From: a virus
Direction: 5' to 3' (one strand)
IMG/VR virus record: IMGVR_UViG_3300047378_000474
Coordinates: 1 to 20,213 of that record
Length of the DNA: 20,213 nt
Shown piece by piece: positions 2,321 to 20,213 of this stretch. A program made the translations under genes and the position numbers. The notes beneath the pieces are model-generated. The model was given only the letters and a program-made list of their open reading frames with translations, had not been told where the DNA came from and did not search any database. Each line of letters opens with the position of its first letter. Within the stretch, counting starts at the first letter, position 1.

Positions 2321-2330
2321 TAAATACGTT

Positions 2331-2838: not shown

Positions 2839-5800
2839 ATGTCAACAACCGACAGACAAAACAGACTATTATTAGCAGAAGATTGGAAGCGTGTTTACCA
2901 GTCATTCCGCAATGCGGATTTTCAAAGCTATGACTTTGACAATCTTCGCAGAACAATGATCTCATATTTACGAGAAAACTATCCAGAAGATTTTAATGAC
3001 TATGTAGAGTCAAGTGAATACTTGGCATTAATTGATCTTATTGCTTTCTTAGGTCAAAATATTAGTTTTCGAATTGATTTAAATGCCCGTGAAAACTTTT
3101 TAGAATTAGCAGAACGCCGTGAAAGCGTATTACGTTTAGCAAGATTGCTTTCCTATAATCCTAAACGTAATCAAGCATCCAACGGATTATTAAAGTTTGA
3201 AACAATTAGTACAACTGAAGATTTATTTGATTCTAACGGAACTAATTTATCAGGACAGACTATTGTATGGAACGATATTTCAAATCAAGACTGGTACGAG
3301 CAGTTTGTTAAAGTATTAAATTCAGCACTACCAGCAAATGGAGTTTTTGGAAGACCAAACAAAACTGATACAGTTAATGGTATAAGTGCAGAACAGTATA
3401 GAGTAAATGGCACAAACACTGATATTCCAGTATTTGGCTTTAGTAAAAGTGTAGACGGTAAGTCTACACAGTTTGAAATAGTTAGTACTGATATCGGTTC
3501 TGGAAACATTATTGAAGAAGCTCCTCTACCAGGAAGTAATTTTGCGTTTTTGTATAGAGATGACGGTCAGGGTGCTGGATCAAATAACACAGGATTTTTT
3601 GCACACTTTAGACAAGGAAGATTAGATCAAGGCGATTTTAATATTTCTAAACCAAGTGCTAATCAAGTTGTTGCTATTGATGCAATTAATGTTAACAATT
3701 CAGATACTTGGTTATATAAATTAGATAACCTTGGCAACGAATCAGAATTATGGACAAAGGTTGATGCTGTAGAAGGCAACAATATTGTGTATAATAGTTT
3801 AAGTAAAAATATTAGAAACATTTATAGTGTATTAACTCGTGTTGAAGATAGAGTTAGTTTAGTTTTTAGTGACGGAACTTTTGGATCTTTACCAAAAGGA
3901 AACTTTAAAATATATTATAGAACTAGTGATAATAGAAATTACGTCATTACTCCAGACGAATTAATTAATATTACAATTAGCATTCCTTATCAAAGTAAAA
4001 CAGGAACAAGCGAAAAACTTACAATTGGCTTAGCGTTAAAATACACTGTTGACAATGGTACTACTTCCGAGTCAAATAATGAAATAAAAGCAAATGCACC
4101 TGCAACATACTATACACAAAATAGAATGGTTACAGGCGAAGATTATCAGATAGCACCACTAGCAGTTAGTCAAGAAATTATAAAAGTAAAAAGTGTAAAC
4201 AGAACGTCAAGCGGAATATCACGATATTACGATTTGCTAGATGCAACTGGAAAATACAGTAAAACTAACTTATACGGTAAAGATGGAATACTTTATACAC
4301 AAACGCTAACAAATAAAGAGACATTTACATTTAATACAAAGACAGATATTGAAGGTATTATTAAAACTCAAATTGAAAGAATTTTAAAAGACTACAAAGT
4401 TAAAAACTTTTACTATGCACAGTTTGCAAAAATATTAGTTAGCGATATTGGAGCAAGATGGAATCAAGTTACCCGAGCGCAAAATATAACTACAGGTTAT
4501 CTAACAGATGCAGATTTTTCTAAATTAAAAACAGGAACATTTACAGCATCAACGTTGCAGTACTTGGAACCCGGAGCAATGCTTAAATTTGAAGCTCCGT
4601 CCGGATATCATTTTATGCCTGATGGAACTATAATGGCAGGTTCTGCAGATCATCCTGGTGCAACAACTTATAAATGGACTAAAGTTGTAAGCGTTAGTGG
4701 TTCTGGAGTTAACAATACAAATGACGGACAAGGTGCTATTGTTCTAAACGATATTATTCCAGGTCCTATTAATAATGATATAACAACAGCTCCTCAGTTA
4801 ACAGAAATTAAACCGTTGTTTACTACAGAAGTAGAAACACAAATTAAAACACAAATAATTGACCAAATATTTACTTATAAAACATTTGGACTTCGATATG
4901 ACTTTCAAACAAATACTTGGCGTGTTATATTAGAAGCTGATCTTGATATACGTTCAAACTTTAGTACTGGTAAAACTGGAGATTTATCTAATCAAAACTT
5001 AGATGCAAGTTGGGTACTATTATTTCAAACCAACGGCGAAACATATACAATAACCTATAGAGGTCAGCGTTATGTATTTGAAAGTGATAAAGAAATAAGA
5101 TTCTATTATGATAGTTCAGATAAAGTATACGATCCTTTAACTAATCAAATTATAAAAGACAAAATATCGTTAATGTCTATTAATACTCAACCAGACGCCA
5201 GCGGATATGCCTTAACACCGTTTACAGTTCCGTTCAATTGGGAAATTGTTAAAGAATATAGAGACGGCGAAGGTTATGTTGATTCTAAGAAGATAGAAGT
5301 AGGGTTTTTTGATAGCGACGATGACGGCGTAGTTGACGATCCAGAAATATTTGACAAATTTATTACTACTAATGCAAGTAAGAAATATATATTCTTAAAG
5401 AAATATATTACAACTGACAATGTTGACGATTTTAGATATGTTGATCAAACAACTGAAAACATACAAGTAGTAGATAACGAAGCAGAAATAACTGATAATG
5501 GTATAGGTAGCTATCCTGATAATTCTGTTTTCTATCAGATAGATAAAAACATATTCAAAGTTTATAATGTAACAACAGAAAAATTAGAATTGTCAGTTGA
5601 CTATAGAGCATATTCAGGAAGAGATAAAATTATTTTCCAATACGAACACGCTGCTGACGAAAGTAGTAGAATTGATCCTAGTAGTTCTAATATTATTGAT
5701 GTATATATGCTTACAAAGCAATACGATACATTATATCGACAGTATTTGCAAGGAGCAATAGATACTAGACCACTAGCACCTAGTTCAGATACTTTATATG

Positions 5801-6351
5801 TTAATTTTGGAGAAGAAATTAATAAAATTAAGTCGATATCAGATGAAGTAATTTATCATCCGGTTAAGTACAAAGTACTATTTGGTACTGAAGCATCGGA
5901 TGATTTAAAAGCAATGTTTAAAATAGTTAAAAACCCGGATAGAGTTGTAAACGAAAACGAATTAAAAGCTAATGTAATTGCAGCAATAAATGAATTTTTT
6001 GCAATTGAAAATTGGGAGTTTGGAGATACATTTTACTTTTCAGAACTTAGTAATTATGTAATGACACAACTTGCTCCTGATCTTGCAGCATTTGTAATTG
6101 TACCAATACAAGAATCACTATCTTTTGGTAGTATGTTTGAAGTAAGAAGTGAAGCCGACGAAGTGTTTATTAGCTCTGCAACTGTAGAAAATATAGAAGT
6201 AGTATCGTCATTAACAGCGTCAAAATTAAAAGCAACTGGAGCAATATATGCTGATGCAACACAAGCATCAGGAGTAGTTAGTGCTTCAGGAAGCAATGTC
6301 TCGAGCAATATCTCAAGCAGTAGCTCATCAAGTGGAGGACTAAGTTACTAA
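2839..6351 (+). CDS. gp6: gp6-like baseplate wedge protein, enlarged
   Basis: Core wedge subunit; in T4, gp6 dimers interlock around the hub to form the inner ring of the baseplate and drive its rearrangement on contraction. The product has 1,170 residues, nearly twice T4 gp6 (660). Residues 1-120 carry the helical N-terminal signature of marine T4-like gp6, including ENFLELAERRESVLRLARLL and SYNPKRNQAS. A beta-rich region follows. VTGEDYQIAPLAVSQEIIKV near residue 435 is typical of gp6/baseplate-J proteins. Residues about 1039-1125 are the conserved C-terminal region (INEFFAIENWEFGDTFYFSE, then FVIVPIQESLSFGSMFEV). An EF-hand-type loop is at 825-836, and the last 30 residues are Ser-rich. 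The start has AGGA 8 bases upstream. The stop TAA overlaps the ATG of the next gene. Only one Cys-free, membrane-free soluble chain is seen. Family assignment is firm; the role of the extra beta region is unknown. Confidence 0.9.
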   Translation: MSTTDRQNRLLLAEDWKRVYQSFRNADFQSYDFDNLRRTMISYLRENYPEDFNDYVESSEYLALIDLIAFLGQNISFRIDLNARENFLELAERRESVLRLARLLSYNPKRNQASNGLLKFETISTTEDLFDSNGTNLSGQTIVWNDISNQDWYEQFVKVLNSALPANGVFGRPNKTDTVNGISAEQYRVNGTNTDIPVFGFSKSVDGKSTQFEIVSTDIGSGNIIEEAPLPGSNFAFLYRDDGQGAGSNNTGFFAHFRQGRLDQGDFNISKPSANQVVAIDAINVNNSDTWLYKLDNLGNESELWTKVDAVEGNNIVYNSLSKNIRNIYSVLTRVEDRVSLVFSDGTFGSLPKGNFKIYYRTSDNRNYVITPDELINITISIPYQSKTGTSEKLTIGLALKYTVDNGTTSESNNEIKANAPATYYTQNRMVTGEDYQIAPLAVSQEIIKVKSVNRTSSGISRYYDLLDATGKYSKTNLYGKDGILYTQTLTNKETFTFNTKTDIEGIIKTQIERILKDYKVKNFYYAQFAKILVSDIGARWNQVTRAQNITTGYLTDADFSKLKTGTFTASTLQYLEPGAMLKFEAPSGYHFMPDGTIMAGSADHPGATTYKWTKVVSVSGSGVNNTNDGQGAIVLNDIIPGPINNDITTAPQLTEIKPLFTTEVETQIKTQIIDQIFTYKTFGLRYDFQTNTWRVILEADLDIRSNFSTGKTGDLSNQNLDASWVLLFQTNGETYTITYRGQRYVFESDKEIRFYYDSSDKVYDPLTNQIIKDKISLMSINTQPDASGYALTPFTVPFNWEIVKEYRDGEGYVDSKKIEVGFFDSDDDGVVDDPEIFDKFITTNASKKYIFLKKYITTDNVDDFRYVDQTTENIQVVDNEAEITDNGIGSYPDNSVFYQIDKNIFKVYNVTTEKLELSVDYRAYSGRDKIIFQYEHAADESSRIDPSSSNIIDVYMLTKQYDTLYRQYLQGAIDTRPLAPSSDTLYVNFGEEINKIKSISDEVIYHPVKYKVLFGTEASDDLKAMFKIVKNPDRVVNENELKANVIAAINEFFAIENWEFGDTFYFSELSNYVMTQLAPDLAAFVIVPIQESLSFGSMFEVRSEADEVFISSATVENIEVVSSLTASKLKATGAIYADATQASGVVSASGSNVSSNISSSSSSSGGLSY
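5311..5346 (+). other. EF-hand-type calcium loop in gp6-like protein
   Basis: The 12 residues DSDDDGVVDDPE (825-836) fit the canonical loop: Asp at 1, 3, 5 and 9, Gly at 6, a branched aliphatic at 8 and Glu at 12. The flanks GFF and IFDKF are short, so it may be a lone Ca2+ loop, not a full helix-loop-helix pair. Confidence 0.6.
6262..6348 (+). other. Ser/Gly-rich C-terminal tail of gp6-like protein
   Basis: The last 29 residues are dominated by Ser, Gly, Ala and Asn and end in SSSSSSSGGLSY. The segment looks disordered. The GGAGGA that serves the next gene is embedded in its final Gly-Gly-Leu codons. Confidence 0.7.
6334..6339 (+). promoter_or_regulatory. Strong Shine-Dalgarno for the giant gene, inside the gp6 coding end
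   Basis: GGAGGA lies 11 bases before the ATG at 6351 and within the last codons of the gp6-like gene. With the TAATG stop/start overlap it points to translational coupling, and it fixes the start of the giant gene. Confidence 0.75.
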
Positions 6352-9300
6352 TGTCATACGACAACGATCAGAATGAATATCCGTTGCCAGCAGAAGGTAA
6401 TAATAACAGAAAAAGTGAATCTTTACTACCTCGATTTTTTAGAACAGAAACGAATAAAAAGTTTTTACAAGCAACATTAGATCAGCTTACTCAACCAGGA
6501 GTTGCTGAAAAGCTAAATGGTTATTACGGCAGACAAATTTCAAAAGCATATAATGCCGACGACAACTACGTTGGCGATGTGTCAACGAACAGAGAAAACT
6601 ATCAGTTTGAACCAGCAACAATAATTAAAGACAATTTAGACAATGTAACTTTTTATAAAGATTACAATGACTACTTAAATCAAATTAGTAGTTTTGGCGG
6701 TAACGTTCAAAATCAAGATATATTAAATTCACAAGAATTTTATGCGTGGAATCCTCATATTGACTGGGATAAGTTTAGTAACTTTCGTGAGTATTATTGG
6801 TTACCATATGGTCCGCAAACTGTAAGAATTGCAGGACAAGAACGCGGTGTTGAAAGTACTATTGCTGTTAAACTTATTAATAATGTAGACAATGTTACAT
6901 ATAGTTTTAGTACAGATGAATTAGTCAATAATCCAACACTAATTTTGTATAGAGGTCAAACATATACATTTGATGTAGATACAACCGGTACTCCGATTAC
7001 TATTAAAACAAAAAGAACGCTAGAAGAAAGTTTTAACTATGATGATGGGGTGAGTGCGCAAGGCGTAGAAAAAGGAAAAATAACATTTACAGTTGGTAAT
7101 TCTACTCCTGAAGTATTATACTATGTTGCTGAAAATGATATTAATAATACTGGTCTAATACAAATTAAAGATATTGAAGAAAATACAGAAATTGATGTCG
7201 AAAAAGAAGTATTAGGTAAAACAACATATAAGTCGTCTCAAGGCACAGTACTTTCAAATGGTATGAAAATATCTTTTGCAGGATTTGTAACTCCTGCAGA
7301 GTACGCAGAAGGTGATTGGTATGTAGAAGGCGTTGGCAGTTCTATTAAATTAATAAAAGAGTCTAGTTTAGAAATTCCTGGATCGTATGCAGACAATAAA
7401 GACGTTCCGTTTGATACAAATGCATTTGATAGATTACCATTTGCAAATGCTAACGGATACCCAACTGCAAAAGATTATATCGTAATTAATCGCGGAAGTC
7501 TTGATAAAAATATGTGGACTAGATATAATAGATGGTTCCATAAAGATGTAATTGAAGCATCTGCAATAGCAAATGGACAAACTGTAAGTGCTGACCAAAG
7601 TGCTAGAGCTACTAGACCAATTGTTGAATTTGAAGCAGGATTAAAATTATTTAATTTTGGAACAAGCAACAAAAAGAACGTGGACGTTATTGATACATTT
7701 ACTAAAGATATATTTTCTATAATTGAAGGATCTTTAGGATATAATGTTGACGGAATAGATCTTGTAAATGGAATGCGTGTATTGTTTACTGCTGACGAAG
7801 ATATTCGCGAAGCAGGTAAAATTTATAAAATTAAATTTGTCACACATAAAGGTCGTAGGCAAATAAGTTTAGTTGAAGAGTCTGATTCTATTCCTTTAGA
7901 AAACGAAACAGTTTTAGCATTACAAGGTGAAGCATACCAAGGAAAAATGTTTTACTACAACGGAACTTCCTGGAATTTAACGCAAGAAAAAACACAAGTT
8001 AATCAGCCGCCACTATTTGATCTATTTGATGATGTAGGTGATAGCTACTCAGATTCAACAATGTATCCTAATTCAACATTTAGCGGAACTAAATTGTTTT
8101 CTTATAAAGCGGGTACTGGAATTGCTGACAGTGAATTAGGATTTCCGTTATCGTATAAAAGTATACAAAATATTGGAGATCTAGTTTTTAACTTTGATTT
8201 ATTGTTAGACACGTTTACATATACAGATACATCCTTAGCAACAGTAACACAAGGCACTGATGTATGTGTGCTACATAACTATTCGTCTAGAAATAATTAC
8301 AATAGTGTTAACGGATGGATCAAAGCAAATACTGAAAGCACTCAGCGTGTGTTACGTCAGTATGTTGCTAATACAAATCAAACAGATTTTGCAGTAGATG
8401 TATACAACAATAGTAGTACACTTGAAGATTTAAATATTCGAATTACAGTAAATAACGATCTTAAATTTGTTAACACAGACTATGAAATTGTAAACATAGG
8501 AACAACCGCAACAGTAAGATTTAATAATCCATTAAATGAAAATGATATTGTAGTACTAAGAACACGTTCTGCTACAACTAAAAATGAAAATGGTATATAT
8601 GAAATTGCTGGAAACTTAGAACGCAATCCATTAAACAACGATGTAACAACATTTACATTAGGTGAAGTTAACGAACACGTTTCTACTATAGTACAAGAAA
8701 CAGATGAGTTTTTTGGAACTTATCCTGGACCAGGAAACTTACGTGATATTAGTAACGCTTCACAGTATGGTAGAAGATTCTTGCAACATAGTGGACCTAC
8801 TAATTTATCACTTTATCATATTACAGATAAAAGTGCAAATATTATTAAATCTATGGATTTTGCCAGAAGAGAATATGCAAAATTTAAAAGATTATTTTTA
8901 CAAACATCATTAGGATTAGGATTTGACGGTACACCTAAAGCACACGTTGATTTAATTTTTAAAGAGTTAAACAAAAACAAAACAAGTAACTTACCATTTT
9001 ACTTTAGTGATATGGTTCCAACTGGCGCAGCAAGAAGACTTGACTATGATGCTATACCAGGTAATGTATATTATGCACTTACACAAGCATTTGACATCAC
9101 TGTTCCTAGCATATTAGCTGTTAACGTTTACTTAAATGATATACAATTAACTTACGATAAGGATTATACATTTAATGCAGATGGTTTTTGTGAAATTACT
9201 GCTACACTAGAATCTACTGATAAAATTACTATATTTGAATTCGAAACAACTGACGGTTCTTATGTTCCACCAACTCCAACAAAGTTAGGTTTATATCCAA

Positions 9301-12300
9301 AATTTGAACCAAAAATGTTTGTTGACAGTTCTTATGCAACACCCCAGACAGTTATTCAAGGTCACGATGGGTCGATTACTGCTGCGTTTAATGACTACAG
9401 AGATGACTTAATACTAGAACTTGAAAAAAGAATTTATAACAATTTAAAAGTACAGTATAACAGCAATTTAATTGATATACATAGTTTTATTCCAGGAGCA
9501 GCTAGAACAACCGGAATATCCTTTGATTCTATAAACAACACAATGTTAAAAGATTTTGCATCTTGGCTAAACACTGTTGGCAATGTTGATTATACTGATT
9601 CGAGTTTTTATAATAGAGAAGACAGATTTACTTATAACTATAGCTCAATGACGTCTCCAACTGGAACAATATTACCAGGCTACTGGCGAGCAATATATAA
9701 TCAGGCTTATGATACTGATAGGCCGCATACTCATCCTTGGGAAATGTTAGGTTTTAATATTAAACCAAGTTGGTGGGAAACACAATATGGGCCTGCTCCT
9801 TATACTAGTAATAATGATGTTATGTGGTCTGATTTAGAAAAAGGTATAATTAATGAGCCTAACAAAGTAAAAGTAATATTAAAAAAATATATTAGACCAA
9901 ACTTAACTTTGAATTTACCAGTTAATGGACAAGGAGAGCTATTAAGTCCTTTAGATAGCGGCTATGCTCGTGATTATGTAAATGCTTTAACTCGTCAACC
10001 ATTTAAGTTTGGTGACGAAGCTCCTGTTGAAACTGCTTGGAGGAAAAGTTCAGATTATCCTTTCTCGTTATTTAAATCTTGGATTTTAAATCAACCTTCA
10101 AAAATTATAGGTTTAGGTTTTGATAGATTGCGCACAATTAGAAATAGTGCTGGACAGTTAGTTTATTCTCAAACTAACAAAAGACTGCGTCTTCAAGACT
10201 TAGTATTTCCTAATAACTCAGCGCAAGAAACTACTAATCGTGTATATAGTTCTGGATTTATAAACTTTATTTCAAATTACCTTGCAAGTAATATTTTAGT
10301 TAACTATCAAAATTATCAAAATAATATAAAAAGTATTACAAATCAAATGGCATTTAAAATAGGCGGATTCACTGATAAGTCTAAATTTAATTTAATACTT
10401 GATTCTAGAACACCTTTAAATGAAGGCAACGTTTTTATTCCAGAAGAAAATTATAATGTAACGTTACAAACAAGTAGTCCTATTGAAATTGTTACTTATA
10501 GCGGTGTTGTTGTAGAAAAAATATCATCAGGATATGTTATTAGAGGATATGATGTAACTAACCCTGCTTTTAAATATTATAAGTTTGATAAAAACGAAAA
10601 AGACCCAATAGTCAGTGTTGGCGGCATTAGTGCTTCGTATATTCAATGGGCTGAAAGAAAACGGTATACTGAAAGTTCAATAGTTGAGTATAATAATGCT
10701 TATTATAGAACTAAAGAAACACATACTAGTACTGGAAACTTTGATACATCTAAATTCGCTAGATTGCCTAGCTTGCCAGTTACTGGCGGAAGATCTGCAA
10801 TATTTAGATCAAAGTTTGATAAAACTTTTGTACAACAATTACCATACGGATCTGTACTACCTGATAGTCAAGCTGTTGTAGACTTTTTGTTAGGATACGG
10901 CGAGCATCTATCAGATCAAGGTTTTGTTTTTAACAATTTTAATAGTAATTTAGAACAAATTGAAAATTGGAAATTAAGTTCAAAAGAATTTTTATTCTGG
11001 ACTTTACAAAACTGGGATACCGGATCCTTACTTACAGTAAGCCCGTCAGCTCAGCGAATTGAGTTTAAACGTAGTGATGCAGTTGTTGATGACGTATTTG
11101 ATACATTTTATGATTACGGACTTGTAAAGGCAGACGGAACTAAACTAAAATCAGAATTTTGTAATATTTTAAGAACTAACGACAATGAGTTTTTATTCAC
11201 TGTTAAAAATACTGCTGACGGAATTTACGCAATAAAACTTCCATTAGTCCAGAAAGAACACGTAGTAATTTTAGATAATGAAACAGCGTTTAAGGACACT
11301 ATTTACGATCTAGAACCTGGTTATAGACAAGAAAGAATTCGTGTATTAGGATACAGAACTGCTGATTGGTCTGGTGGATTAAACATTCCAGGATTTATAT
11401 ACGATCAGGCAGTAGTAACAGAATGGACACCTTGGAAAGATTATGCAATTGGTGACGTAGTTAAATACAAAGAATACTATTACACTGCAACTAAAAAAAT
11501 AACTGGTAGCGAAGTATTTGTTTCTAAGAACTGGTATAGATTGGATGAAAAACCAACTCCAGGACTATTAACTAATTTAGAATACAAAACTAATCAGTTT
11601 GCAGACTTCTACGATTTAGACACCGATAACTTTGATGTTAGTCAGCAAGAAGTTGCACAGCATTTAATTGGTTATCAAAAGCGTGATTATCTAGCAAATA
11701 TTATTAATGACGATGTTAGTCAGTATAAATTTTATCAAGGTTTTATTGCTGATAAAGGTACTAAAAACGCATTGACTAAACTGTTTGATGCACTCGGCGC
11801 AGTAGATAAAGAAAGTTTAAACTTTTATGAAGAGTGGGCTGTTAGAACAGGACAGTACGGTGCAGCTGACGGATATGAAGAACTTGAATTTTTATTAGAC
11901 GAAGAACAATTTAGATTAAGTCCTCAGCCAATATTATTAACAAGTATAATACCTGATGATGTTTCAGATTTAATATACCGTCAATTACCGTCTAGTGTAT
12001 ATGTTGCTCCTAAAGATTATAACGGAAATCCATTTCCAACAGCATATGTTGAAGAAACTCCAATTAAAACTGCTGGATATGTAAGAGAAGATGATGTTGA
12101 TTTTATTGTAACTAATAAAGATGAAATTTTAAATTTAGATATAACAGATTTTGACAGTAATGAATATGTTTGGGTAACATTTGAAAATCAAGAATGGAAT
12201 GTATATAAACATATTGATACAAACTATACTATAATAGATGCAATACCTGATGGAAATGTTTGCACATTAGTTCTTAATAAAATAAGCAACTTTAAAGAAG

Positions 12301-15300
12301 GTGACTTTATTGGAATACAAAATATTACTGATCTTAACGGATTTTATAAAGTATTAAGTAGTTCTGTAAATAGAATTGATATAGATTTAGTTGATGTAGC
12401 TTTTACAGGTGTAGAAGAATCAGACGGCAGTATAGAAGGAATTTTAACAACATTTGTTTCTAATCGTGTTTCTAAATTAGAAGATGCAAATGAGTACGCA
12501 CAAAGAGATATTGCAACTAAGGAAAAGATTTGGATTGATAGTGCTGACGACAACGGTAGATGGAATGTAATACAATCATCTCCTGCATACGATTTAGATG
12601 AAGATGTTACAAATCCAACACAATCAAATACAAGTTTTGGTAAATCAATTGCTGCTGATACTACAAACACTTTTGTTGCTATTGGCTCTCCAGAAAATAG
12701 TGAAGGCAAAGTTCACGTATACAAGCGACAGCAAGATGGTAGCACAGTTTACGGAACACTGCAACCACATCAAACACTAGAACCAATTACAAACTTTGAC
12801 AACGGCACAAGTAAGTTTGGATCTAGTGTTGCAATGAGTCCAGATGGAGAATATATTGTTGTTGGTGCTCCAGAGGCAACATATGTTAAAAGTGCATTTA
12901 AAGACAACTTTACATTTACAAGTGATTATAAATTAGGTGCTATTGTACAATATGAAGGTGGACTATATAAATCAAGAAGAAGCGTAAAAGGTAATACTGA
13001 TAATATAGTATTTGGTTCTTTTGACAGCGCAAGTCGCTGGCGCTCAGAACTATACAAAGTTCATAATTCTTATGCAGATTTCCCTACACTTGCAATAGGC
13101 GATTTACCATTAGCAGTGTCAACTGATCATATTTTAGTAAGAGCTCCAATTGATTCTTATGAAGGAAGTAATGTTGGAGACAAGTTGTATTTAGATTGGA
13201 ATGATTTATCAAATGCTTATGATAATAATTCTGGTGTTAATATTACTGGAATTGATATGACATCGCCGATGAAACTAATTACACAAACAGATCACGGTTT
13301 GTCTGATGCTGATACGATAATAATTACCGACGTACCAAATGATAACATTGTGTTACCAGATACTGGACAATTTGATAATAGTGATGTTAATGTTCCGTAT
13401 GATACTATTCAACAGCAAGGTGTTAAAGGCTTAGAAAACAGAACATATTTTGTTAAAGTTATTTCAGCACAGCAAATTGAGTTATACGAAGATTCTGCAT
13501 TATTACAAAGAGTAAATGCAAATATAGGATTTTCAGGACAGCCAATTGGAGCTGCTGCCGGAAACTTAAATTTAGGTGACGGCACTATACAGGGAACAAT
13601 AAGACAAATTGAAACTCCGTTTAGCAATATTACAGAACCTGGCGTTCCTTGGAAAACATTTTTAACGTCTGATGTTCATACTATTAGACGTAAGATTACT
13701 GATGTATTTTATGTTTTAGATCCTGTAAACATTCCTGATATTCCTGTAGAATTAACACTAGCAGGAAATCTTCCTAATGCTATAAATGTTGGTGATACTA
13801 TAAGGCAAGAAAACAATACTGTTGTAGGAACAGTAAAACAAATTAATAATAACGTAATACAAGTTATAGATGTTTCGGGTATATTTAAGACTGGTGCCGA
13901 CGGTGGCGGAAATATTACTTATACTAGCGGAGAAACGACAGTAGTAGCAAGCAATACTATACCTTCAGCAGTTACATCAATTGTTGATGAAGGCGTAAGA
14001 GTAACTACTTCTACTGGTAACGCTACAGTTGTATATTCACGTAACGAACTAGGTAAACTTGTAATTTATGCTAACGATAAAAATGGTGTATTTGATGCAA
14101 CAGGCGAATTGTTTATTAACGATCAATTTAAAATTGGTAATTATGAACGTCCATTGCACGACGAAATTGATAGAAGTAGTGTACTAGGCGGCTTCTGGGA
14201 AATAGCACTTCCGCAGTCAGTAACTACTACTAATAGTCATACAGATAATGCTTACGGATTAGTTATTAGAGATGTAAAAAATAATTATAATCCTAGCAAC
14301 TATTCATCGCCGGACGCTACCTGGACTGAAAGTGCAGCACTATTACCGTACAAAAGTAGCTTACAAAATGCATTAGATAATCCTGTTCAAATACTTGTTG
14401 GTGTTGACCAACCATTCCAAAAAGAAGTTGACTTAATTAGAGTGTTAAGTCATAAAAGTCAAGGTGTTGCAGGAGTAGTTACTGAGACTGATGTGTTAGA
14501 TTCACGCTATGTTGTTAGAATACCTAAAGCAGTATCTGATAAAGCAACATCAGCATTTGCTAATGCGTCTACTCCTAATCCATATGTTGGTGTGTTCTTA
14601 AACGATCTTCCATCATCTGATGGAAACACTCCAGACTTGACAAACAAAGGATTTGGTACAGATGTTTTCAATATTATAAATCAAACAAAAGTTCCAGTAG
14701 ATTTATGGGACGGATATATTGATTATGATGTGTTTGATCTAACTTTGGATTTAGAAGTTGGAGATATTATTAGAGAAGGCGAAACAGGCGCAACAGCAGA
14801 AGTAGTTTACTATCAACGTGACGGTGATCAAGTTAGAATTTATGTTAAAAATGTTGCAGGTACATTTACATTTGGTACTCGATATATAACAGGTGTAGCT
14901 CCAGCTTCTATGTTTATATACAAGCAAGTTGGTGCTGTTCTAACAAGAATTGGTACTACTGAATCAAGACAACTAGCCGACGACGACATAGGTAAATTAG
15001 CAGTATTCCAACATACAGAAAACTTAACAATTCCGCCTACATTAACTTATGCAATTAATAGTGAGACTGATGAAATTGCAGACTACGAAGTAGAATTTAT
15101 AACAGGTGTTGAATATCAAACTTGGATTGAAGAATTTAAACCAGGCACTTCGAGAGTTTCTCTAGTACCTAGTACAGAAAACAATGACTGGGCAGAAGTA
15201 AATAATATTCCAATAAACGTTGGCAGAGATGCAAGTACAGTTGTTAGAGAAGGAGCATTCTTTGTATATAAACACAATAATGAAACTGATCAATATGATT

Positions 15301-18300
15301 TAGTTAATGGTTATATTTTACCGAACAGAGAAACTAATAGACAATTAGGTAAACAAGTAAAATTAATTAATAACGAAAATTTTTATAAGTTAGCAATTAA
15401 CAGTAATGAGTCACACGCAAATGACGAAAAGCAAGAAGTAAGTTCTGCAGGTAAAGGAAGAATTTATTTTGTTATTAACGGTCAAGACGAGTTTGGCACA
15501 TATGATTGGGAACAAGGCCGTAACAAAAACTTTAAAGGAATTTATAGAAATACTTCGGCTTATTATGTTGACCAAATTGTAATTTATCAAGATTCTTTTT
15601 ACAAAGCATTAACTAATTTAAACAATGAAGAATTTGATAGTTCTAAATGGCAACTAGTTAGTGATCACGCTGATTTTGTTGGATATGTTCCGAATACATC
15701 TGGGTTTGTATTCCCTGGAGACGACTCAAGTATAGTTAATTTAAACACTAGTGACTTTGGTACTGTATTTGATATAAGCGAATCAGGAAGTATTTTTGCA
15801 ACTATTGCAAAATACAGCGACGGAACTAGTAAATTAGTAATTTATCGCCTAAAAGACTCGCATTTTGAATATGTAACAGAATTTACTGCCCCAGCGACCA
15901 GTACTGGATTTGGAAATGCTATTGCAGTATCTGATAATGGTAACTTAATTGCAGTTGGAGCATCTTCTACAAATACTGAGCAGTTAAAACAAGGACAAAT
16001 TTTTGTATATAAAAATGTTAACGGAACATTTACTTTATCTCAAACATTAAACAGTCCTAATAAAGAACTTGCTGAAGGTTTTGGTTCTAGATTAGGATTT
16101 GACGGTAATCAGTTAGTAGTCACTGGCACTACTAGTGATATAGTTTTAGATACTACTTTTGATAGGTATCAAAATAAGAAACCTGGATCAACGTATGTTA
16201 ATGATCCAAGAAGTGCATTGCAGGTTGGAGAAACAGTATTTGACGGTGGCTTTACAACTTATGCAAGAAGAATTGAAGATAGTGGTCTTGTTTTCATATA
16301 CGAAAATATAAATGACTCATTAATATTTGGTCAACGACTAACATATAATAATTTTGATGTTAAAGATTTTGGTGATAATATTCTTGTTAAAAATGACACT
16401 ATTATGATAGGATTACCAAACCTTAGTGTTGACGATACACTTTCTGGTAAAGTTGCTGTATATATTAAAGATGCAGATAGTAGTACTTGGAGTGTACTAA
16501 GAAGTCCAGTTGATCCTATAACAATGCAGAAATTTAGAGGATCGTTCCTTTATAATACTGTTGAAAACAAAATGTTAACAAGACTTGACATAATTGATCC
16601 TTTACAAGGAAAGATTTCAGGAATTGCAGAACAAGAATTGTCTTATAAGACATATTACGATCCTGCAAGTTATAATGTAGGTTTTGCAAATACTAAAGAG
16701 AAGTTCATTGCCTGGAATGATCAAAACGTAGGAAAGTTATGGTGGGATTTAAGCACGGTAAAATTCCTAGACTACAGACAAGGTAAAATTACATTTGCAC
16801 AAAATATCTGGAATACATTAGCAAAAGGTGCTAGTGTAGATGTTTACGAATGGGTTGAATCAAAAATACTTCCAAGTGCTTGGGATAATCAAGCCGATAC
16901 TAATGAAGGCACTTCTAGAGGATATAGTGGACAGACAAAATACGGTGATAGTAAGTATGTTGAAAAAGACATATATGATAAAATTTCACAAACGTTTAGC
17001 AAGCGTTATTATTTCTGGGTTAAAAACAAAAAGATTGTTCCAAGTGTAGAAGGAAGAATACGCAGCGGTTTTGATATTGCAAATATTATTGCAGATCCTT
17101 CAGGACAAAAATTAAAATTTGTTAATATACTTGGTAGCGATAGATTTATCCTTTATAACTGTAACAACTTAATTGAAAATAAAGAAATAGCAATCAATTT
17201 CCGTTATTGGACTATTGACAATCAAGATAATAATATTCATACAGAATATCAAATTATTACTGATGGGTTAGAAACAAGTCGACCTAAGAGCATAATTGAA
17301 CAAAAATGGTTTGATAGTTTAGTTGGACAAGATTTATATCATAGACCAGTTCCTGATCCAGCACTAAGTGTTAAGCAAAAATACGGTAATTTAAATAGAC
17401 CTAGACAAAGTTGGTTTGTTAATAGAGTTGAAGCACTAAAAGAAGTTATTGAAAGAGTTAACAGAGTATTAGAATCTCAGCTTGCTATTGATAATCTTAA
17501 TCTTACAAAATTATCTGAAAAAGATCCAATCCCAACATTATTGTCAGGACAATATGATGAAGCAATCGATACTGAGGCTGAATTAAGACTAGTTGGTACG
17601 GTGCGAGCAACGCAAGCACAACTTGAAGCAGTAGTTGTAGACGGTACTGTAACTAAAATTAATATAGTTAATGCAGGTAGAGGATATCGTAATCCTCCTA
17701 ATATTATAGTTACCGGTACAGGCGAAGATTTAGAGTTACAAGTTGTTTTAAACAACATCGGAGCTATATCTAGCGTTAATATAATTGACGGCGGCACTAA
17801 CTACCAAGACAACATTACCCTTGCTGTACGACCCTTAACGGCGCTTGTACGTGCTGATTCTACGCTAGGGGGCATATGGTCATTATATGCGTGGGATAGT
17901 GTTAATAGAAATTGGACAGTATCTAAACAACAGTATTATGATGTATCTCAATATTGGGAATACAAAGATTGGTATGCTACAGGATACAGCGAGTTAACAT
18001 CATTTGATTATTTAATAGACGATTATTATGAATTGAATGTTATTAATGACGGTATTGGCGATATTGTAAAAATATCTAATGTTGGTACCGGTGGTTGGAT
18101 TCTATTAGAAAAAATTATTAATATTGATACTCCAGATTATACAACAGGGTATAAGACAATTGGTAGACAAAGCGGAACTATTAAATTCTTAGAGAAAACT
18201 TATACTACTGAAGAAGGAAAAACGGAATTACGAAAAATATTAGAAACTATTAGAGATGACTTGTTTGTTGACGAACTAGCAAATGAATACAACCAGTTGT

Positions 18301-20213
18301 TCTTTTCAAGTTTGCGATATGTATTATCAGAGCAAAATTATGCAGATTGGTTGTTCAAAACTAGTTTTGTTAAGGCAAAACATAATGTTGGCCAATTAAT
18401 TGAAAAAACAACATATCAAAATGATAACTTACCTAGTTTTGAAGAATACACAAACGAAGTTAAACCATATAAAACTAAAATTAGAGAATACTTGTCTGCA
18501 TATGAAAAAACAGATAATACACAGAGTGTTGTAACAGATTTTGAATTATCACCGTTCTTTAGTGTACAGTTAGGAAAAATAGTATCACCACAAGTACAAA
18601 TAACCGACGGCGTATTATCGGGCATAAATTTTGACGAAACTGAATATCCGCAAAAGCATTGGATTGATAATTTTACATATGGCATAGATAAAATTATTGT
18701 AAAAGATGGCGGAACAGGATACACTGAAGCACCGTCGATAATTATCGCTGGCGGCGGCGGCACTGGCGCTAAAGCTAGAGCATTTATTGGTAGCGGAAGT
18801 GTTACGTCGGTTGTTGTTACTGACCCAGGTAGTGGATATACAAGTACTCCAACAGTTACTATTATAGGAACACAAGCAGAAAATAGTAAACTTCCTACTG
18901 TTTCGGTAATACTTAAAAATCAAAAAGTTAGAACGTTTAATGTAAAACAAAAATTCGATAGAATTACACCAAATTTTGAATTATTTAATTTACCAGAGTC
19001 TGAAACATTTACAAGCACTGGTACTGAATTAAAATTAGGTTTAAAATATCCAATGGATTTAACTAGATCTAATATTAGAGTATTTTTTAATAATGTTGAA
19101 GCACTCAGTAGCGAATTTACTTATAATAATGAAGAAGTACTAGTTAGTGATAAATCTTATACAAAAGAAGTTGGATATATTTTATTAAACAGCAGTAAGA
19201 TTGCAGGAACACTTATTAAAGTAGAATATAATAAAGGTTATGAACTTTTAAATGCTGCAGACAGAATTAGTTTGTTATACAATCCTGAAACAGGGCAGTA
19301 TGGTAAAGACCTAGGACAGTTAATGGACGGAGTCGACTATGGCGGAGTAGAAGTACGTTCGTTTGAATTTGGGCAAGATGCAGGATTTGATTCACAACCT
19401 TGGTATACGTCTGCTTGGGACACTTACGATGAAAACTTTGATGATGAAAGTTTTGTTACTGAAGGATTAACAACTTCATTTACATTAAGTAAACCGTTAG
19501 AAGAAGAGGCATTATATAATGTCTACGTAAACACTACACGAGTTGATGATCCAAATTATGATGGTAGTACAAAAACATATCTATCAGATGATGGGTCCAC
19601 AATACTTGCATTAGGAAATCCTAATGCAATGATGAAAACGCTTACTACTGAAAGCGACGAATATGAAGTAACTACTGATGCAAGCGGATTACCTGTTTAT
19701 AAAGTTAATATACAAAATGTTGATGACTGGGAAGAATTTTTTGCTTCTGAAGGCACTCCAGCAGTACCGGCAGTACCGGCAGTAGTTGCAGATCCGGAAT
19801 ACAACAATGGTGCAATTATTGATGTTACAGGCGATGGTAGTGATTTCTTCAAACGTGAAGTTACAACCAACGGTGTAAGAATTATGGGTGCCGGCACAGT
19901 AGGTGGACAAACAGCGGTTCCAGATGCGTGGTTAGAAAAAGTAGCACGTATGTTTGAATTATTCTTAGATCCAAATGGCGCAAGCATTAACGAAACGTAT
20001 CAAAGAGCAATGATCCAAACACTAAGTGGTGATACAGGAACTTGGCACGAAGGGTTACCAACATTACAAAGAGTAGCTAGAGGTGCAGGAGCAGATTATA
20101 CTCCAAACTTCTTAACTGACGCAGGCGTTATTAGTTGGAACCTAACAAACTTGTTTGATACTCACGTTGCTAACGATATGGTTTGGTACTTGAACTCAAC
20201 TGGCGATGGCTAC
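6351..20213 (+). CDS. Giant modular structural/baseplate-associated protein (3' end beyond window)
   Basis: One frame stays open for 4,621 codons with no stop before the window ends. I read most lines and found no break. The start is fixed by GGAGGA and a TAATG overlap with gp6. No signal peptide or membrane segment is seen, and I count only five Cys. Residues 1-170 and several blocks (QPPLFDLFDDVG near 552, RPHTHPWEMLGF near 1124, YGEHLSDQGFVF near 1507) match what I remember of large uncharacterised structural proteins in marine T4-like phages. Modules in order: cupredoxin-like 193-272; CBM5/12-like at about 1433, 1692, 2190 and 3065; FG-GAP blades 2093-2178 and 3133-3374; FCCH-like 2306-2381; Gly-Asp-Ile beta modules near 2478 and 2801; GGxGY repeats near 3764 and 4114; helical C-terminal segment from about 4504. 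Its position after gp6 matches T4 gene 7 and the outer wedge genes, so a peripheral baseplate or receptor-facing role is inferred. Its exact function is unknown. Confidence 0.82.
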   Translation, partial: MSYDNDQNEYPLPAEGNNNRKSESLLPRFFRTETNKKFLQATLDQLTQPGVAEKLNGYYGRQISKAYNADDNYVGDVSTNRENYQFEPATIIKDNLDNVTFYKDYNDYLNQISSFGGNVQNQDILNSQEFYAWNPHIDWDKFSNFREYYWLPYGPQTVRIAGQERGVESTIAVKLINNVDNVTYSFSTDELVNNPTLILYRGQTYTFDVDTTGTPITIKTKRTLEESFNYDDGVSAQGVEKGKITFTVGNSTPEVLYYVAENDINNTGLIQIKDIEENTEIDVEKEVLGKTTYKSSQGTVLSNGMKISFAGFVTPAEYAEGDWYVEGVGSSIKLIKESSLEIPGSYADNKDVPFDTNAFDRLPFANANGYPTAKDYIVINRGSLDKNMWTRYNRWFHKDVIEASAIANGQTVSADQSARATRPIVEFEAGLKLFNFGTSNKKNVDVIDTFTKDIFSIIEGSLGYNVDGIDLVNGMRVLFTADEDIREAGKIYKIKFVTHKGRRQISLVEESDSIPLENETVLALQGEAYQGKMFYYNGTSWNLTQEKTQVNQPPLFDLFDDVGDSYSDSTMYPNSTFSGTKLFSYKAGTGIADSELGFPLSYKSIQNIGDLVFNFDLLLDTFTYTDTSLATVTQGTDVCVLHNYSSRNNYNSVNGWIKANTESTQRVLRQYVANTNQTDFAVDVYNNSSTLEDLNIRITVNNDLKFVNTDYEIVNIGTTATVRFNNPLNENDIVVLRTRSATTKNENGIYEIAGNLERNPLNNDVTTFTLGEVNEHVSTIVQETDEFFGTYPGPGNLRDISNASQYGRRFLQHSGPTNLSLYHITDKSANIIKSMDFARREYAKFKRLFLQTSLGLGFDGTPKAHVDLIFKELNKNKTSNLPFYFSDMVPTGAARRLDYDAIPGNVYYALTQAFDITVPSILAVNVYLNDIQLTYDKDYTFNADGFCEITATLESTDKITIFEFETTDGSYVPPTPTKLGLYPKFEPKMFVDSSYATPQTVIQGHDGSITAAFNDYRDDLILELEKRIYNNLKVQYNSNLIDIHSFIPGAARTTGISFDSINNTMLKDFASWLNTVGNVDYTDSSFYNREDRFTYNYSSMTSPTGTILPGYWRAIYNQAYDTDRPHTHPWEMLGFNIKPSWWETQYGPAPYTSNNDVMWSDLEKGIINEPNKVKVILKKYIRPNLTLNLPVNGQGELLSPLDSGYARDYVNALTRQPFKFGDEAPVETAWRKSSDYPFSLFKSWILNQPSKIIGLGFDRLRTIRNSAGQLVYSQTNKRLRLQDLVFPNNSAQETTNRVYSSGFINFISNYLASNILVNYQNYQNNIKSITNQMAFKIGGFTDKSKFNLILDSRTPLNEGNVFIPEENYNVTLQTSSPIEIVTYSGVVVEKISSGYVIRGYDVTNPAFKYYKFDKNEKDPIVSVGGISASYIQWAERKRYTESSIVEYNNAYYRTKETHTSTGNFDTSKFARLPSLPVTGGRSAIFRSKFDKTFVQQLPYGSVLPDSQAVVDFLLGYGEHLSDQGFVFNNFNSNLEQIENWKLSSKEFLFWTLQNWDTGSLLTVSPSAQRIEFKRSDAVVDDVFDTFYDYGLVKADGTKLKSEFCNILRTNDNEFLFTVKNTADGIYAIKLPLVQKEHVVILDNETAFKDTIYDLEPGYRQERIRVLGYRTADWSGGLNIPGFIYDQAVVTEWTPWKDYAIGDVVKYKEYYYTATKKITGSEVFVSKNWYRLDEKPTPGLLTNLEYKTNQFADFYDLDTDNFDVSQQEVAQHLIGYQKRDYLANIINDDVSQYKFYQGFIADKGTKNALTKLFDALGAVDKESLNFYEEWAVRTGQYGAADGYEELEFLLDEEQFRLSPQPILLTSIIPDDVSDLIYRQLPSSVYVAPKDYNGNPFPTAYVEETPIKTAGYVREDDVDFIVTNKDEILNLDITDFDSNEYVWVTFENQEWNVYKHIDTNYTIIDAIPDGNVCTLVLNKISNFKEGDFIGIQNITDLNGFYKVLSSSVNRIDIDLVDVAFTGVEESDGSIEGILTTFVSNRVSKLEDANEYAQRDIATKEKIWIDSADDNGRWNVIQSSPAYDLDEDVTNPTQSNTSFGKSIAADTTNTFVAIGSPENSEGKVHVYKRQQDGSTVYGTLQPHQTLEPITNFDNGTSKFGSSVAMSPDGEYIVVGAPEATYVKSAFKDNFTFTSDYKLGAIVQYEGGLYKSRRSVKGNTDNIVFGSFDSASRWRSELYKVHNSYADFPTLAIGDLPLAVSTDHILVRAPIDSYEGSNVGDKLYLDWNDLSNAYDNNSGVNITGIDMTSPMKLITQTDHGLSDADTIIITDVPNDNIVLPDTGQFDNSDVNVPYDTIQQQGVKGLENRTYFVKVISAQQIELYEDSALLQRVNANIGFSGQPIGAAAGNLNLGDGTIQGTIRQIETPFSNITEPGVPWKTFLTSDVHTIRRKITDVFYVLDPVNIPDIPVELTLAGNLPNAINVGDTIRQENNTVVGTVKQINNNVIQVIDVSGIFKTGADGGGNITYTSGETTVVASNTIPSAVTSIVDEGVRVTTSTGNATVVYSRNELGKLVIYANDKNGVFDATGELFINDQFKIGNYERPLHDEIDRSSVLGGFWEIALPQSVTTTNSHTDNAYGLVIRDVKNNYNPSNYSSPDATWTESAALLPYKSSLQNALDNPVQILVGVDQPFQKEVDLIRVLSHKSQGVAGVVTETDVLDSRYVVRIPKAVSDKATSAFANASTPNPYVGVFLNDLPSSDGNTPDLTNKGFGTDVFNIINQTKVPVDLWDGYIDYDVFDLTLDLEVGDIIREGETGATAEVVYYQRDGDQVRIYVKNVAGTFTFGTRYITGVAPASMFIYKQVGAVLTRIGTTESRQLADDDIGKLAVFQHTENLTIPPTLTYAINSETDEIADYEVEFITGVEYQTWIEEFKPGTSRVSLVPSTENNDWAEVNNIPINVGRDASTVVREGAFFVYKHNNETDQYDLVNGYILPNRETNRQLGKQVKLINNENFYKLAINSNESHANDEKQEVSSAGKGRIYFVINGQDEFGTYDWEQGRNKNFKGIYRNTSAYYVDQIVIYQDSFYKALTNLNNEEFDSSKWQLVSDHADFVGYVPNTSGFVFPGDDSSIVNLNTSDFGTVFDISESGSIFATIAKYSDGTSKLVIYRLKDSHFEYVTEFTAPATSTGFGNAIAVSDNGNLIAVGASSTNTEQLKQGQIFVYKNVNGTFTLSQTLNSPNKELAEGFGSRLGFDGNQLVVTGTTSDIVLDTTFDRYQNKKPGSTYVNDPRSALQVGETVFDGGFTTYARRIEDSGLVFIYENINDSLIFGQRLTYNNFDVKDFGDNILVKNDTIMIGLPNLSVDDTLSGKVAVYIKDADSSTWSVLRSPVDPITMQKFRGSFLYNTVENKMLTRLDIIDPLQGKISGIAEQELSYKTYYDPASYNVGFANTKEKFIAWNDQNVGKLWWDLSTVKFLDYRQGKITFAQNIWNTLAKGASVDVYEWVESKILPSAWDNQADTNEGTSRGYSGQTKYGDSKYVEKDIYDKISQTFSKRYYFWVKNKKIVPSVEGRIRSGFDIANIIADPSGQKLKFVNILGSDRFILYNCNNLIENKEIAINFRYWTIDNQDNNIHTEYQIITDGLETSRPKSIIEQKWFDSLVGQDLYHRPVPDPALSVKQKYGNLNRPRQSWFVNRVEALKEVIERVNRVLESQLAIDNLNLTKLSEKDPIPTLLSGQYDEAIDTEAELRLVGTVRATQAQLEAVVVDGTVTKINIVNAGRGYRNPPNIIVTGTGEDLELQVVLNNIGAISSVNIIDGGTNYQDNITLAVRPLTALVRADSTLGGIWSLYAWDSVNRNWTVSKQQYYDVSQYWEYKDWYATGYSELTSFDYLIDDYYELNVINDGIGDIVKISNVGTGGWILLEKIINIDTPDYTTGYKTIGRQSGTIKFLEKTYTTEEGKTELRKILETIRDDLFVDELANEYNQLFFSSLRYVLSEQNYADWLFKTSFVKAKHNVGQLIEKTTYQNDNLPSFEEYTNEVKPYKTKIREYLSAYEKTDNTQSVVTDFELSPFFSVQLGKIVSPQVQITDGVLSGINFDETEYPQKHWIDNFTYGIDKIIVKDGGTGYTEAPSIIIAGGGGTGAKARAFIGSGSVTSVVVTDPGSGYTSTPTVTIIGTQAENSKLPTVSVILKNQKVRTFNVKQKFDRITPNFELFNLPESETFTSTGTELKLGLKYPMDLTRSNIRVFFNNVEALSSEFTYNNEEVLVSDKSYTKEVGYILLNSSKIAGTLIKVEYNKGYELLNAADRISLLYNPETGQYGKDLGQLMDGVDYGGVEVRSFEFGQDAGFDSQPWYTSAWDTYDENFDDESFVTEGLTTSFTLSKPLEEEALYNVYVNTTRVDDPNYDGSTKTYLSDDGSTILALGNPNAMMKTLTTESDEYEVTTDASGLPVYKVNIQNVDDWEEFFASEGTPAVPAVPAVVADPEYNNGAIIDVTGDGSDFFKREVTTNGVRIMGAGTVGGQTAVPDAWLEKVARMFELFLDPNGASINETYQRAMIQTLSGDTGTWHEGLPTLQRVARGAGADYTPNFLTDAGVISWNLTNLFDTHVANDMVWYLNSTGDGY
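6927..7166 (+). other. Cupredoxin-like beta module in the giant protein, metal ligands absent
   Basis: NPTLILYRGQTYTFDVD, then PITIKT, then ITFTVGN and PEVLYYVAENDINNTGLIQI follow the strand order of small cupredoxin-like modules that recur in marine phage structural proteins. The usual pattern has His in the P-x-IKT segment and Cys/His near the LYY segment. Here these are Thr, Ala and Asn, so a bound copper is unlikely and a structural role fits better. Confidence 0.5.
10647..10766 (+). other. CBM5/12-like carbohydrate-binding module 1
   Basis: W-x6-Y-x4-VEYNNAYYRTKE, then FDTSKFARL, follows the chitin-binding type 3 pattern: Trp, then Tyr, Val-x-Tyr, Tyr-Tyr and a closing aromatic. It is the most diverged of the four copies; Phe replaces the last Trp. 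Confidence 0.4.
11424..11543 (+). other. CBM5/12-like carbohydrate-binding module 2
   Basis: WTPWKDYAIGDVVKYKEYYY, then TATKK and SKNWYRL, is a close fit to the chitin-binding type 3 consensus (W-x-Y-x-x-GD-x-V-x-Y-x-x-x-x-Y-x-A-x(n)-W). It is the clearest copy in the protein. Confidence 0.6.
12628..12882 (+). repeat. FG-GAP beta-propeller blades, first group (two)
   Basis: Blade 1 reads SFGKSIAADTTNTFVAIGSP, then EGKVHVYKR; blade 2 reads KFGSSVAMSPDGEYIVVGAP. These match the FG...GAP pattern of integrin-alpha-type propellers: FG, small residues, a turn, a hydrophobic strand, G-x-P, then G-x-V-x-VY. The DxDxDG calcium loop of integrins is not present. Confidence 0.7.
12918..13052 (+). other. 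CBM5/12-like carbohydrate-binding module 3
   Basis: SDYKLGAIVQYEGGLYKSRR, then FGSFDSASRW, keeps the Tyr-x-x-Gly, Val-x-Tyr, Tyr-Lys and closing Trp positions. It follows directly after the first two FG-GAP blades. Confidence 0.5.
13266..13493 (+). other. FCCH-like beta module in the giant protein
   Basis: PMKLITQTDHGLSDADTIII, then GLENRTYFVKVISAQQIELY and ED, follows the pattern DHGL-x-x-G/AD-x-V/I, N-x-x-Y-x-V and x-EL-x-D. This pattern recurs in phage modules related in sequence to the FCCH domain of ubiquitin-activating enzyme E1. It implies a small beta barrel, not an enzyme. About 30 extra residues sit in the middle. Confidence 0.45.
13782..13895 (+). repeat. Gly-Asp-Ile beta module, copy 1
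   Basis: INVGDTIRQENNTVVGTVKQ, then VIQVIDVSGIFKTG, has the same order as the later copy at 14751: VGD-x-I-R, a small-residue turn, x-V-x-x-x, then I-x-V-x-x-V-x-G-x-F. It probably forms a small beta barrel. Confidence 0.4.
14751..14894 (+). repeat. Gly-Asp-Ile beta module, copy 2
   Basis: LEVGDIIREGETGATAEVVY, then VRIYVKNVAGTFTFGTRY, parallels the copy at 13782. The TGATAEV turn is the form usually seen in phage tail beta modules of this kind. Confidence 0.45.
15543..15660 (+). other. CBM5/12-like carbohydrate-binding module 4
   Basis: AYYVDQIVIYQDSFYKALTN, then EEFDSSKWQLV, keeps Tyr, Val-x-Tyr, Phe-Tyr-Lys-Ala and the closing Trp. It sits just before the FG-GAP blades resume. Confidence 0.5.
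15747..16470 (+). repeat. FG-GAP beta-propeller blades, second group (four)
   Basis: Four more units start at FGTVFDISESG, FGNAIAVSDNGNLIAVGAS, FGSRLGFDGNQLVVTGT and FGDNILVKNDTIMIGLP. Each is closed by strands such as GQIFVYKN, SGLVFIYEN and SGKVAVYIKD. The third has an insertion of about 45 residues before its closing strand. With the earlier two this gives six visible blades of an expected six or seven. Confidence 0.7.
17629..17832 (+). repeat. GGxGY-type beta repeats, first pair (degenerate)
   Basis: VTKINIVNAGRGYRNPPNII and SSVNIIDGGTNYQDNITLAV are two units of the motif 'strand, N/D-G-G-x-G-Y, P-x-hydrophobic' common in phage tail proteins. The Gly-Gly and Gly-Tyr positions are partly lost. 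Confidence 0.6.
18690..18875 (+). repeat. GGxGY-type beta repeats, second pair (well kept)
   Basis: KIIVKDGGTGYTEAPSIIIA, a Gly run GGGGTGAKARA, then SVVVTDPGSGYTSTPTVTII. These are two clean units, each about 40 residues, related to the pair near 17629. Confidence 0.75.
19761..19784 (+). repeat. 9-base tandem repeat encoding Ala-Val-Pro
   Basis: GCAGTACCG occurs twice in perfect tandem and continues for GCAGTA, 24 bases in all. It encodes AVPAVPAV in frame and probably forms a short linker before the C-terminal segment. Perfect identity suggests recent slippage. Confidence 0.85.
19860..20213 (+). other. C-terminal helical segment of the giant protein (cut by window end)
   Basis: After the beta modules the composition changes. 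TNGVRIMGAG is followed by AWLEKVARMFELFLDPNGAS, INETYQRAMIQTLSGDTGTW, HEGLPTLQRVARGAGADYTP and VANDMVWYLNS. It reads as a compact, mainly helical domain that continues past the window. I recall similar segments in marine phage proteins but cannot name a family. Confidence 0.5.

What the first reader, a model, noticed from the sequence alone, without database searches (positions are those of the whole stretch)
6351..20213. Giant single gene of more than 4,600 codons next to gp6
The frame is open for 13.86 kb with no stop in the window. This is far longer than typical tape-measure or tail-fibre genes. It occupies the place of T4 gene 7 and the outer wedge genes, suggesting that several small baseplate proteins have been replaced by one mosaic polypeptide.
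Basis: partly seen in the sequence, partly recalled or inferred. Interest (0 to 1): 0.75.

Follow-up and report, generated by a model that had tools for sequence, protein, structure and literature searches.

The report
Giant phage baseplate protein with swappable modules
The huge gene is real: it encodes a known but unstudied family of giant virus-tail baseplate proteins from large phages, and in this lineage one of its variable slots holds a highly conserved protein module that has moved between many unrelated marine phage proteins and also occurs on marine bacteria.

Summary
One frame is open from 6351 to the contig end (4,621 codons). A 99.5%-identical relative shows the complete gene: 5,624 codons. 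It is not an assembly artefact, since several independent metagenomes carry it intact. It is not unique either: the same giant sits directly after gp6 in RaK2-, PBECO4-, PA5oct- and Atu_ph07-type jumbo phages (3,326-4,555 aa, PHROG 10938) and in hundreds of aquatic IMG/VR contigs. Proteomics of CBB and phAPEC6 found it in virions. 'Replacement of T4 gene 7' is plausible by position, but no T4 gp7 or gp8 similarity was found, and PA5oct keeps a separate gp10-like gene.

New is the architecture: three conserved blocks and two slots of very variable length. Slot 2, where the window ends, holds a ~315-aa module 86% identical to part of gp10 of Synechococcus phage S-RIM12, although the surrounding proteins are unrelated. 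The module occurs in more than 200 viral contigs, in many unrelated proteins, and in lipoproteins of marine Actinomarinales. It matches no family library. Its predicted fold resembles zincin metallopeptidases, with a variant EHxxH motif. I read the giant as a baseplate wedge scaffold carrying exchangeable surface-acting domains.

The parts
25..2316 (+). gp5-like baseplate hub/tail lysozyme, 5' end cut by the contig; C-terminal GH19-like domain (context)
   Evidence: phrog_13211, phrog_181; PF22178, PF00182
2331..2777 (+). gp25-like baseplate wedge protein (context)
   Evidence: PF04965; phrog_261/43
2839..6351 (+). gp6-like baseplate wedge protein (context)
   Evidence: phrog_10646 E 3.8e-291; distant profile match to T4 gp6
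6334..6338 (+). GGAGG ribosome-binding-like site; start codon overlaps gp6 stop by 1 base (TAATG)
   Evidence: sequence printed
6351..20213 (+). giant virion protein, 4,621 codons, runs off the contig (complete length 5,624 aa in the 99.5% relative)
   Evidence: (phrog_10938)
6351..12350 (+). conserved block 1 (residues 1-2000)
   Evidence: model of 1-1190 pLDDT 82.5
6840..7184 (+). cupredoxin-like beta-sandwich (residues 164-278) without His or Cys, so without copper ligands
   Evidence: Z 11.0, rmsd 2.3 over 99 residues; sequence
10644..10739 (+). CBM5/12-like carbohydrate-binding motif; weaker copies at about 11421, 12918 and 15543
   Evidence: 26.9 bits, cut-off 26.2; for the weaker copies (below cut-off)
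11751..11822 (+). DKGT..A...LF..L motif resembling the KGIEASYKFLFKVLY stretch of T4 gp7 (not significant)
   Evidence: hhalign probability 0.4%
12678..16505 (+). variable slot 1 (residues about 2110-3385): FG-GAP/propeller-like repeats around a long insertion
   Evidence: about 100 aa in RaK2, ~500 in L163, ~1,400 here; PF14312 at 12813-12878; at about 15897-16010
16518..19610 (+). conserved block 2 (residues 3390-4420)
17628..17807 (+). GxGYxxPPxIxI-type repeat, also in S-RIM12 giant and gp10; second copy at 18684-18857
19611..20213 (+). variable slot 2 (begins at residue ~4421; 390 aa here, about 20-50 aa in most relatives)
19778..20213 (+). first ~145 aa of the ~315-aa mobile zincin-like module (complete in L086:12776-13720)

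Best explanation
The gene encodes a giant baseplate wedge protein of an uncultivated aquatic jumbo myophage, a member of the RaK2-type family that directly follows gp6. Inferred: it stands in for T4 gp7 (and perhaps gp8) as the outer part of each wedge, linking the gp6/gp25 inner ring to peripheral adhesins. Shown: three conserved blocks form a shared scaffold, interrupted by two slots of very different length between lineages. Slot 1 carries propeller-like repeats. In this lineage slot 2 carries a mobile ~315-aa module. Inferred: slot domains face the host and bind or process its surface, so they are exchanged by recombination while the scaffold is constrained by baseplate geometry. The module's predicted fold resembles zincins but has EHxxH instead of HExxH, so it is either an unusual surface metallopeptidase or a binding domain derived from one.
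For: Homology over the conserved blocks in eight named jumbo phages, with the gene order gp6-giant in seven of them. Virion peptides for the homologues CBB_236 (21 peptides, PMC5259590) and phAPEC6 gp245 (381.9 kDa, 17 peptides, next to the gp244 wedge; PMC7247149); PA5oct gp355 is annotated ESI-MS/MS. A large protein also follows gp6 in Synechococcus phages: 6,376 aa in S-RIM12; 1,937 aa with 91 peptides, called 'baseplate wedge, intermediate', in S-CREM2 (PMC10665884). Blocks and slots. Module 77-87% identical while the flanking scaffold is 29-72% identical in most giants that carry it; GC3 0.28 against 0.17-0.19 in the flanks; dN/dS about 0.15. Fold: the listed rows are zincins.
Against: No sequence or profile match to T4 gp7, and the fold comparison of residues 1-1190 did not list it; the T4 gp6 control itself was weak (60% probability), so the test has little power. 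No proteomics exist for this phage, and peptide coverage in relatives is under 8%. The zincin match is Z 6.9 at most, below the level at which one fold can be trusted, and Foldseek alone found nothing significant.
Confidence: 0.72

Rival explanations
1. It is a peripheral adhesin or whisker/fibre protein that is merely encoded in the wedge operon; the real gp7 equivalent is another, unrecognised gene.
For: No gp7 similarity; beta-rich, modular, with CBM-like and propeller-like parts typical of adhesins; giant proteins also occur in cyanophage tail-fibre loci.
Against: Directly after gp6 in nearly every relative, with a 1-base overlap here and in Atu_ph07; block 1 is among the most conserved parts, unlike adhesins.
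Confidence: 0.2
2. The giant chain is a precursor cut by a phage protease into several baseplate proteins.
For: Very large; low peptide coverage in relatives cannot exclude it.
Against: phAPEC6 lists the product as one 381.9-kDa entry, but that is the predicted mass; no cleavage site was tested.
Confidence: 0.05
3. Assembly or sequencing error joined separate genes.
For: Contig ends inside the frame.
Against: Gap-free 97.5-99.5% agreement with independently assembled contigs, and open frames at 50-90% identity; isolate jumbo phages carry the same giant.
Confidence: 0.01
4. Tape-measure protein.
For: Length only.
Against: Located in the wedge operon after gp6; residues 1-1190 are mostly beta in the model, whereas tape measures are largely helical (established knowledge).
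Confidence: 0.01

Closest known systems
RaK2-type giant virion structural protein after gp6 (PHROG 10938; RaK2 gp465, PBECO4 gp538, GAP32_230, CBB_236, phAPEC6 gp245)
   Same: Same gene order, homologous over the conserved blocks, virion component in CBB and phAPEC6
   Different: 3,326-3,341 aa in the members read here (RaK2, PBECO4, GAP32); slot 1 about 90-110 aa, slot 2 about 20 aa; here 5,624 aa with both slots filled
Atu_ph07 gp180 / Phosso 294 / PA5oct gp355 / SCTP-2 gp140
   Same: Homologous, directly after gp6 (in SCTP-2 gp6 lies elsewhere in the genome), 3,807-4,555 aa
   Different: Slot contents differ; no mobile module
Cyanophage S-RIM12 gp148 (6,376 aa, PHROG 701)
   Same: Same position after gp6; shares GxGY-type repeats
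   Different: Scaffold not detectably homologous; has a short T4 gp7 match and a separate full-length gp8
T4 gp7
   Same: Gene position after gp6
   Different: 1,032 aa; no significant sequence or profile similarity
Zincin metallopeptidases (Pro-Pro endopeptidases PPEP-1/2/3, M30 lugdulysin, anthrax lethal factor), for the slot-2 module
   Same: Predicted fold: the leading structure rows are zincins (Z up to 6.9)
   Different: EHxxH in place of HExxH; no sequence similarity; activity unknown

Membership tests
RaK2-type giant (PHROG 10938) | Homology over the long conserved blocks | tested here: met
   E 0, 1093 bits, 4 stretches
RaK2-type giant (PHROG 10938) | Gene directly downstream of gp6 | tested here: met
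   (SCTP-2 is the exception)
RaK2-type giant (PHROG 10938) | Present in virions | not testable with these tools
   Reported for homologues only
T4 gp7 (PHROG 964) | Sequence/profile similarity to gp7 | tested here: not met
   low power, see gp6 control
T4 gp7 (PHROG 964) | Gene position immediately after gp6 | tested here: met
T4 gp7 (PHROG 964) | gp7 core fold (helical core bundle) | tested here: inconclusive
   Only residues 1-1190 modelled; one cupredoxin-like domain filled the hit list
T4 gp8 | Profile match beyond the repeat stretch | tested here: not met
   in the giants only the repeat part (about profile 185-315) matches; S-RIM12 has a separate full-length gp8
T4 gp10 | Profile similarity to gp10 outside the mobile module | tested here: not met
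   T4 gp10; S-RIM12 gp10: only the module and short repeats
Zincin metallopeptidase (module) | Zincin fold | tested here: inconclusive
   best Z 6.9, rmsd 4.3 over 153 residues, listed rows zincins; Foldseek not significant
Zincin metallopeptidase (module) | HExxH zinc motif | tested here: not met
   invariant E155, E158, H159, H162 (EVxEHxxH) in 59 sequences; kept in a distant lipoprotein
Zincin metallopeptidase (module) | Peptidase activity | not testable with these tools
   needs purified protein

The most novel reading that the evidence does not exclude
The slot-2 module is a previously undescribed, highly mobile metal-dependent surface enzyme (a variant zincin with an EHxxH motif) that marine phages plug into whatever baseplate or fibre protein they have, and that marine Actinomarinales display as lipoproteins; it gives phages of unrelated lineages the same access to a common cell-surface target.
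Probability: 0.3. Interest if true: 0.75.

Novelty: new variant of a known kind. Interest (0 to 1): 0.5.

Why it matters
Baseplates were long studied through T4, where many small proteins build each wedge. A widespread family of jumbo phages appears to use one chain of 3,300-5,600 residues at the gene-7 position, with slots that accept whole foreign domains. If right, wedge evolution by domain plug-in becomes testable with cryo-EM of available phages (121Q/PBECO4 type). The module is a ready marker of recent exchange between jumbo and T4-like cyanophages and of a shared surface target in the ocean.

Tried and rejected
Fusion of T4 gp7, gp8, gp9, gp10, gp11, gp12 or gp53: block-wise and whole-length hhalign gave nothing noteworthy. 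The gp8-profile hits inside the S-RIM12, Atu_ph07 and Phosso giants are a shared repeat, not gp8; the phrog_460 'head closure' hit is probably the same repeat type. A gp7-like KGT motif at residue ~1801 is suggestive by eye but not significant. Solved-structure sequence searches of the giant, gp6 and the module found no relative. Structure search of residues 1-1190 returned mostly cupredoxins; gp7 was not listed, which is no proof of absence. The module matched nothing in Pfam, PHROGs, NCBIfam or plasmids, and Foldseek against viral models gave nothing significant. Cyanobacterial host: among isolates the module occurs only in Synechococcus/Prochlorococcus phages, but no psbA-type gene was found in 32 related or module-bearing records, and Actinomarinales carry the module, so the host is left open. 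Tape measure and assembly error rejected as above.

Full report
The window is a 20,213-base IMG/VR fragment. It holds, on one strand, a gp5-like hub/lysozyme gene cut at the contig start, gp25, gp6 and the giant frame. The frame is real: 4,621 codons from an ATG that overlaps the gp6 stop by one base, steady codon-position composition up to the last ~400 bases, and no stop to the contig end; shuffled sequence gave at most 179 codons. Near-identical contigs from other metagenomes align without a gap at 99.5% and 97.5%, and one of them gives the stop: 5,624 codons in all.

It belongs to a known family. Searches of isolate phages found the same protein directly after gp6 in Atu_ph07 (4,449 aa), Phosso (4,555), PA5oct (3,857), RaK2 (3,326), PBECO4 (3,333), GAP32 (3,341) and Vibrio phage 2.275 (3,771), and in SCTP-2 (3,807), where gp6 lies elsewhere. 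PHROG 10938 covers it. About 300 IMG/VR stretches encode relatives of its first part and more than 500 of its last part (the latter includes module matches). Virion proteomics detected the homologues: CBB_236 with 21 unique peptides (PMC5259590) and phAPEC6 gp245, 381.9 kDa, 17 peptides, beside the gp244 wedge protein (PMC7247149); PA5oct gp355 carries an ESI-MS/MS note. That CBB_236 and gp245 are this protein rests on their place next to gp6 and, for gp245, its size; CBB also has the sequence hit. Large proteins after gp6 also occur in cyanophages: S-RIM12 6,376 aa, S-CREM2 1,937 aa with 91 peptides (PMC10665884).

Is it T4 gp7? By position yes, by sequence not shown. Block-wise profile comparison with seven gp7 proteins, and with T4-type gp6, gp8, gp9, gp10, gp11, gp12 and gp53, found nothing. 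The control pair, gp6 of these phages against T4 gp6, reached only 60% probability, so such distances are near the limit of the method. PHROG 964 (gp7) matches T4 and, over 28 residues, the S-RIM12 giant, but none of eight isolate jumbo phages or a 278-kb relative. PHROG 438 (gp8) matches the giants only in a repeat stretch, and no separate gp8 was found in the jumbo phages. PA5oct keeps a gp10-like protein as a separate gene, and the gene after the giant in the window's relatives is PHROG 11259, as in PA5oct.

Architecture. An alignment of 31 complete giants shows conserved blocks at residues 1-2000, 3390-4420 and 4800-5624 and two slots. Slot 1 is about 100 aa in RaK2, about 500 in L163 and 1,400 here; it carries FG-GAP/propeller-like repeats. 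Slot 2 is about 20-50 aa in most relatives and 390 here. Scattered CBM5/12-like motifs, one above the Pfam cut-off, lie in block 1 and slot 1. A model of residues 1-1190 (pLDDT 82.5) contains a cupredoxin-like sandwich at 164-278 (Z 11) that has no His or Cys and so no copper site (sequence).

The mobile module. The window's last 435 bases are 84.6% identical to gp10 of S-RIM12; in the complete relative the shared stretch is 946 alignment columns, 316 aa at 86%, and fills most of slot 2. It is found in 85 isolate phage records, all Synechococcus or Prochlorococcus phages, all at 80-90%, and in about 200 or more IMG/VR contigs, inside proteins of about 480 to over 5,000 residues, at N-terminal, internal or C-terminal places, most without similarity to each other's reference proteins outside the module. 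In giants that carry it, module identity is 77-87% while scaffold identity is mostly 29-72%. GC and GC3 differ from the flanks and dN/dS is about 0.15, which fits recent transfer under purifying selection. Four Actinomarinales/Acidimicrobiia genomes hold it at 62-66% as the C-terminal domain of small proteins with an N-terminal signal and lipobox-like Cys, between chromosomal genes (the neighbours look like a ketoacyl-ACP synthase, an enoyl-ACP reductase and a pyruvate phosphate dikinase by eye); a more distant lipoprotein keeps the motif. Pfam, PHROGs, NCBIfam and PDB sequences give no match. The model (pLDDT 82.5, pTM 0.85) gives no significant Foldseek match, but the VIA-align list consists of zincins: PPEP-2 at Z 6.9, then lethal factor, PPEP-1 and PPEP-3, lugdulysin, zinc aminopeptidases and collagenases. 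Z below 8 can be a common arrangement, so the fold is a lead. The helix that would carry HExxH reads EVIEHVFHTLH, with E155, E158, H159, H162, H165 and E226 invariant in 59 sequences. Enzyme or derived binding domain cannot be told apart here.

Mechanism proposed. Shown: gene order, homology, blocks and slots, module exchange; virion presence in relatives is reported in papers. Inferred: the blocks form the outer wedge on gp6/gp25, and slot domains project towards the cell and bind or process its surface. Domain shuffling in baseplate and receptor-binding proteins is a known theme (PMC10684548); the extent seen here in a gene-7-position giant, and this module, I did not find described in the papers searched, which is a limited library.

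Limits. The window's phage is a fragment with unknown host; no psbA-type gene was seen in 32 related or module-bearing records, themselves mostly fragments. Only two pieces could be folded. Blocks 2 and 3, and residues 1191-2110, remain untested for gp7/TssG-like folds.

Noticed in passing
window 25-2316: gp5-like protein with order OB domain, beta-helix, then a C-terminal GH19-like domain, unlike T4 gp5 where the lysozyme lies between OB and beta-helix; an imperfect 24-base repeat lies at 992-1047.
   Followed up: partly
window 6840-7184: Cupredoxin-like domain without copper ligands inside a baseplate protein; related stretches occur in P-SSM2 and other cyanophage tail-fibre-like proteins.
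   Followed up: partly
L180:1688-6894, L181:1885-6933: Marine actinobacterial lipoprotein genes: a ~1,300-aa lipoprotein-like gene followed by the module lipoprotein.
   Followed up: partly
L270:766-1653: Distant 295-aa lipoprotein homologue of the module with the motif GEVIEHLLH retained.
   Followed up: partly
L081 (record of 278,126 bases, 178633-178857 -): A second large frame of 3,225 residues with the same repeat type in a related jumbo phage.
   Followed up: no
L002:13844-19015 (S-RIM12 gp10): 1,723-residue gp10 of a cyanophage carries the mobile module at residues 724-1039 plus GxGY repeats.
   Followed up: yes
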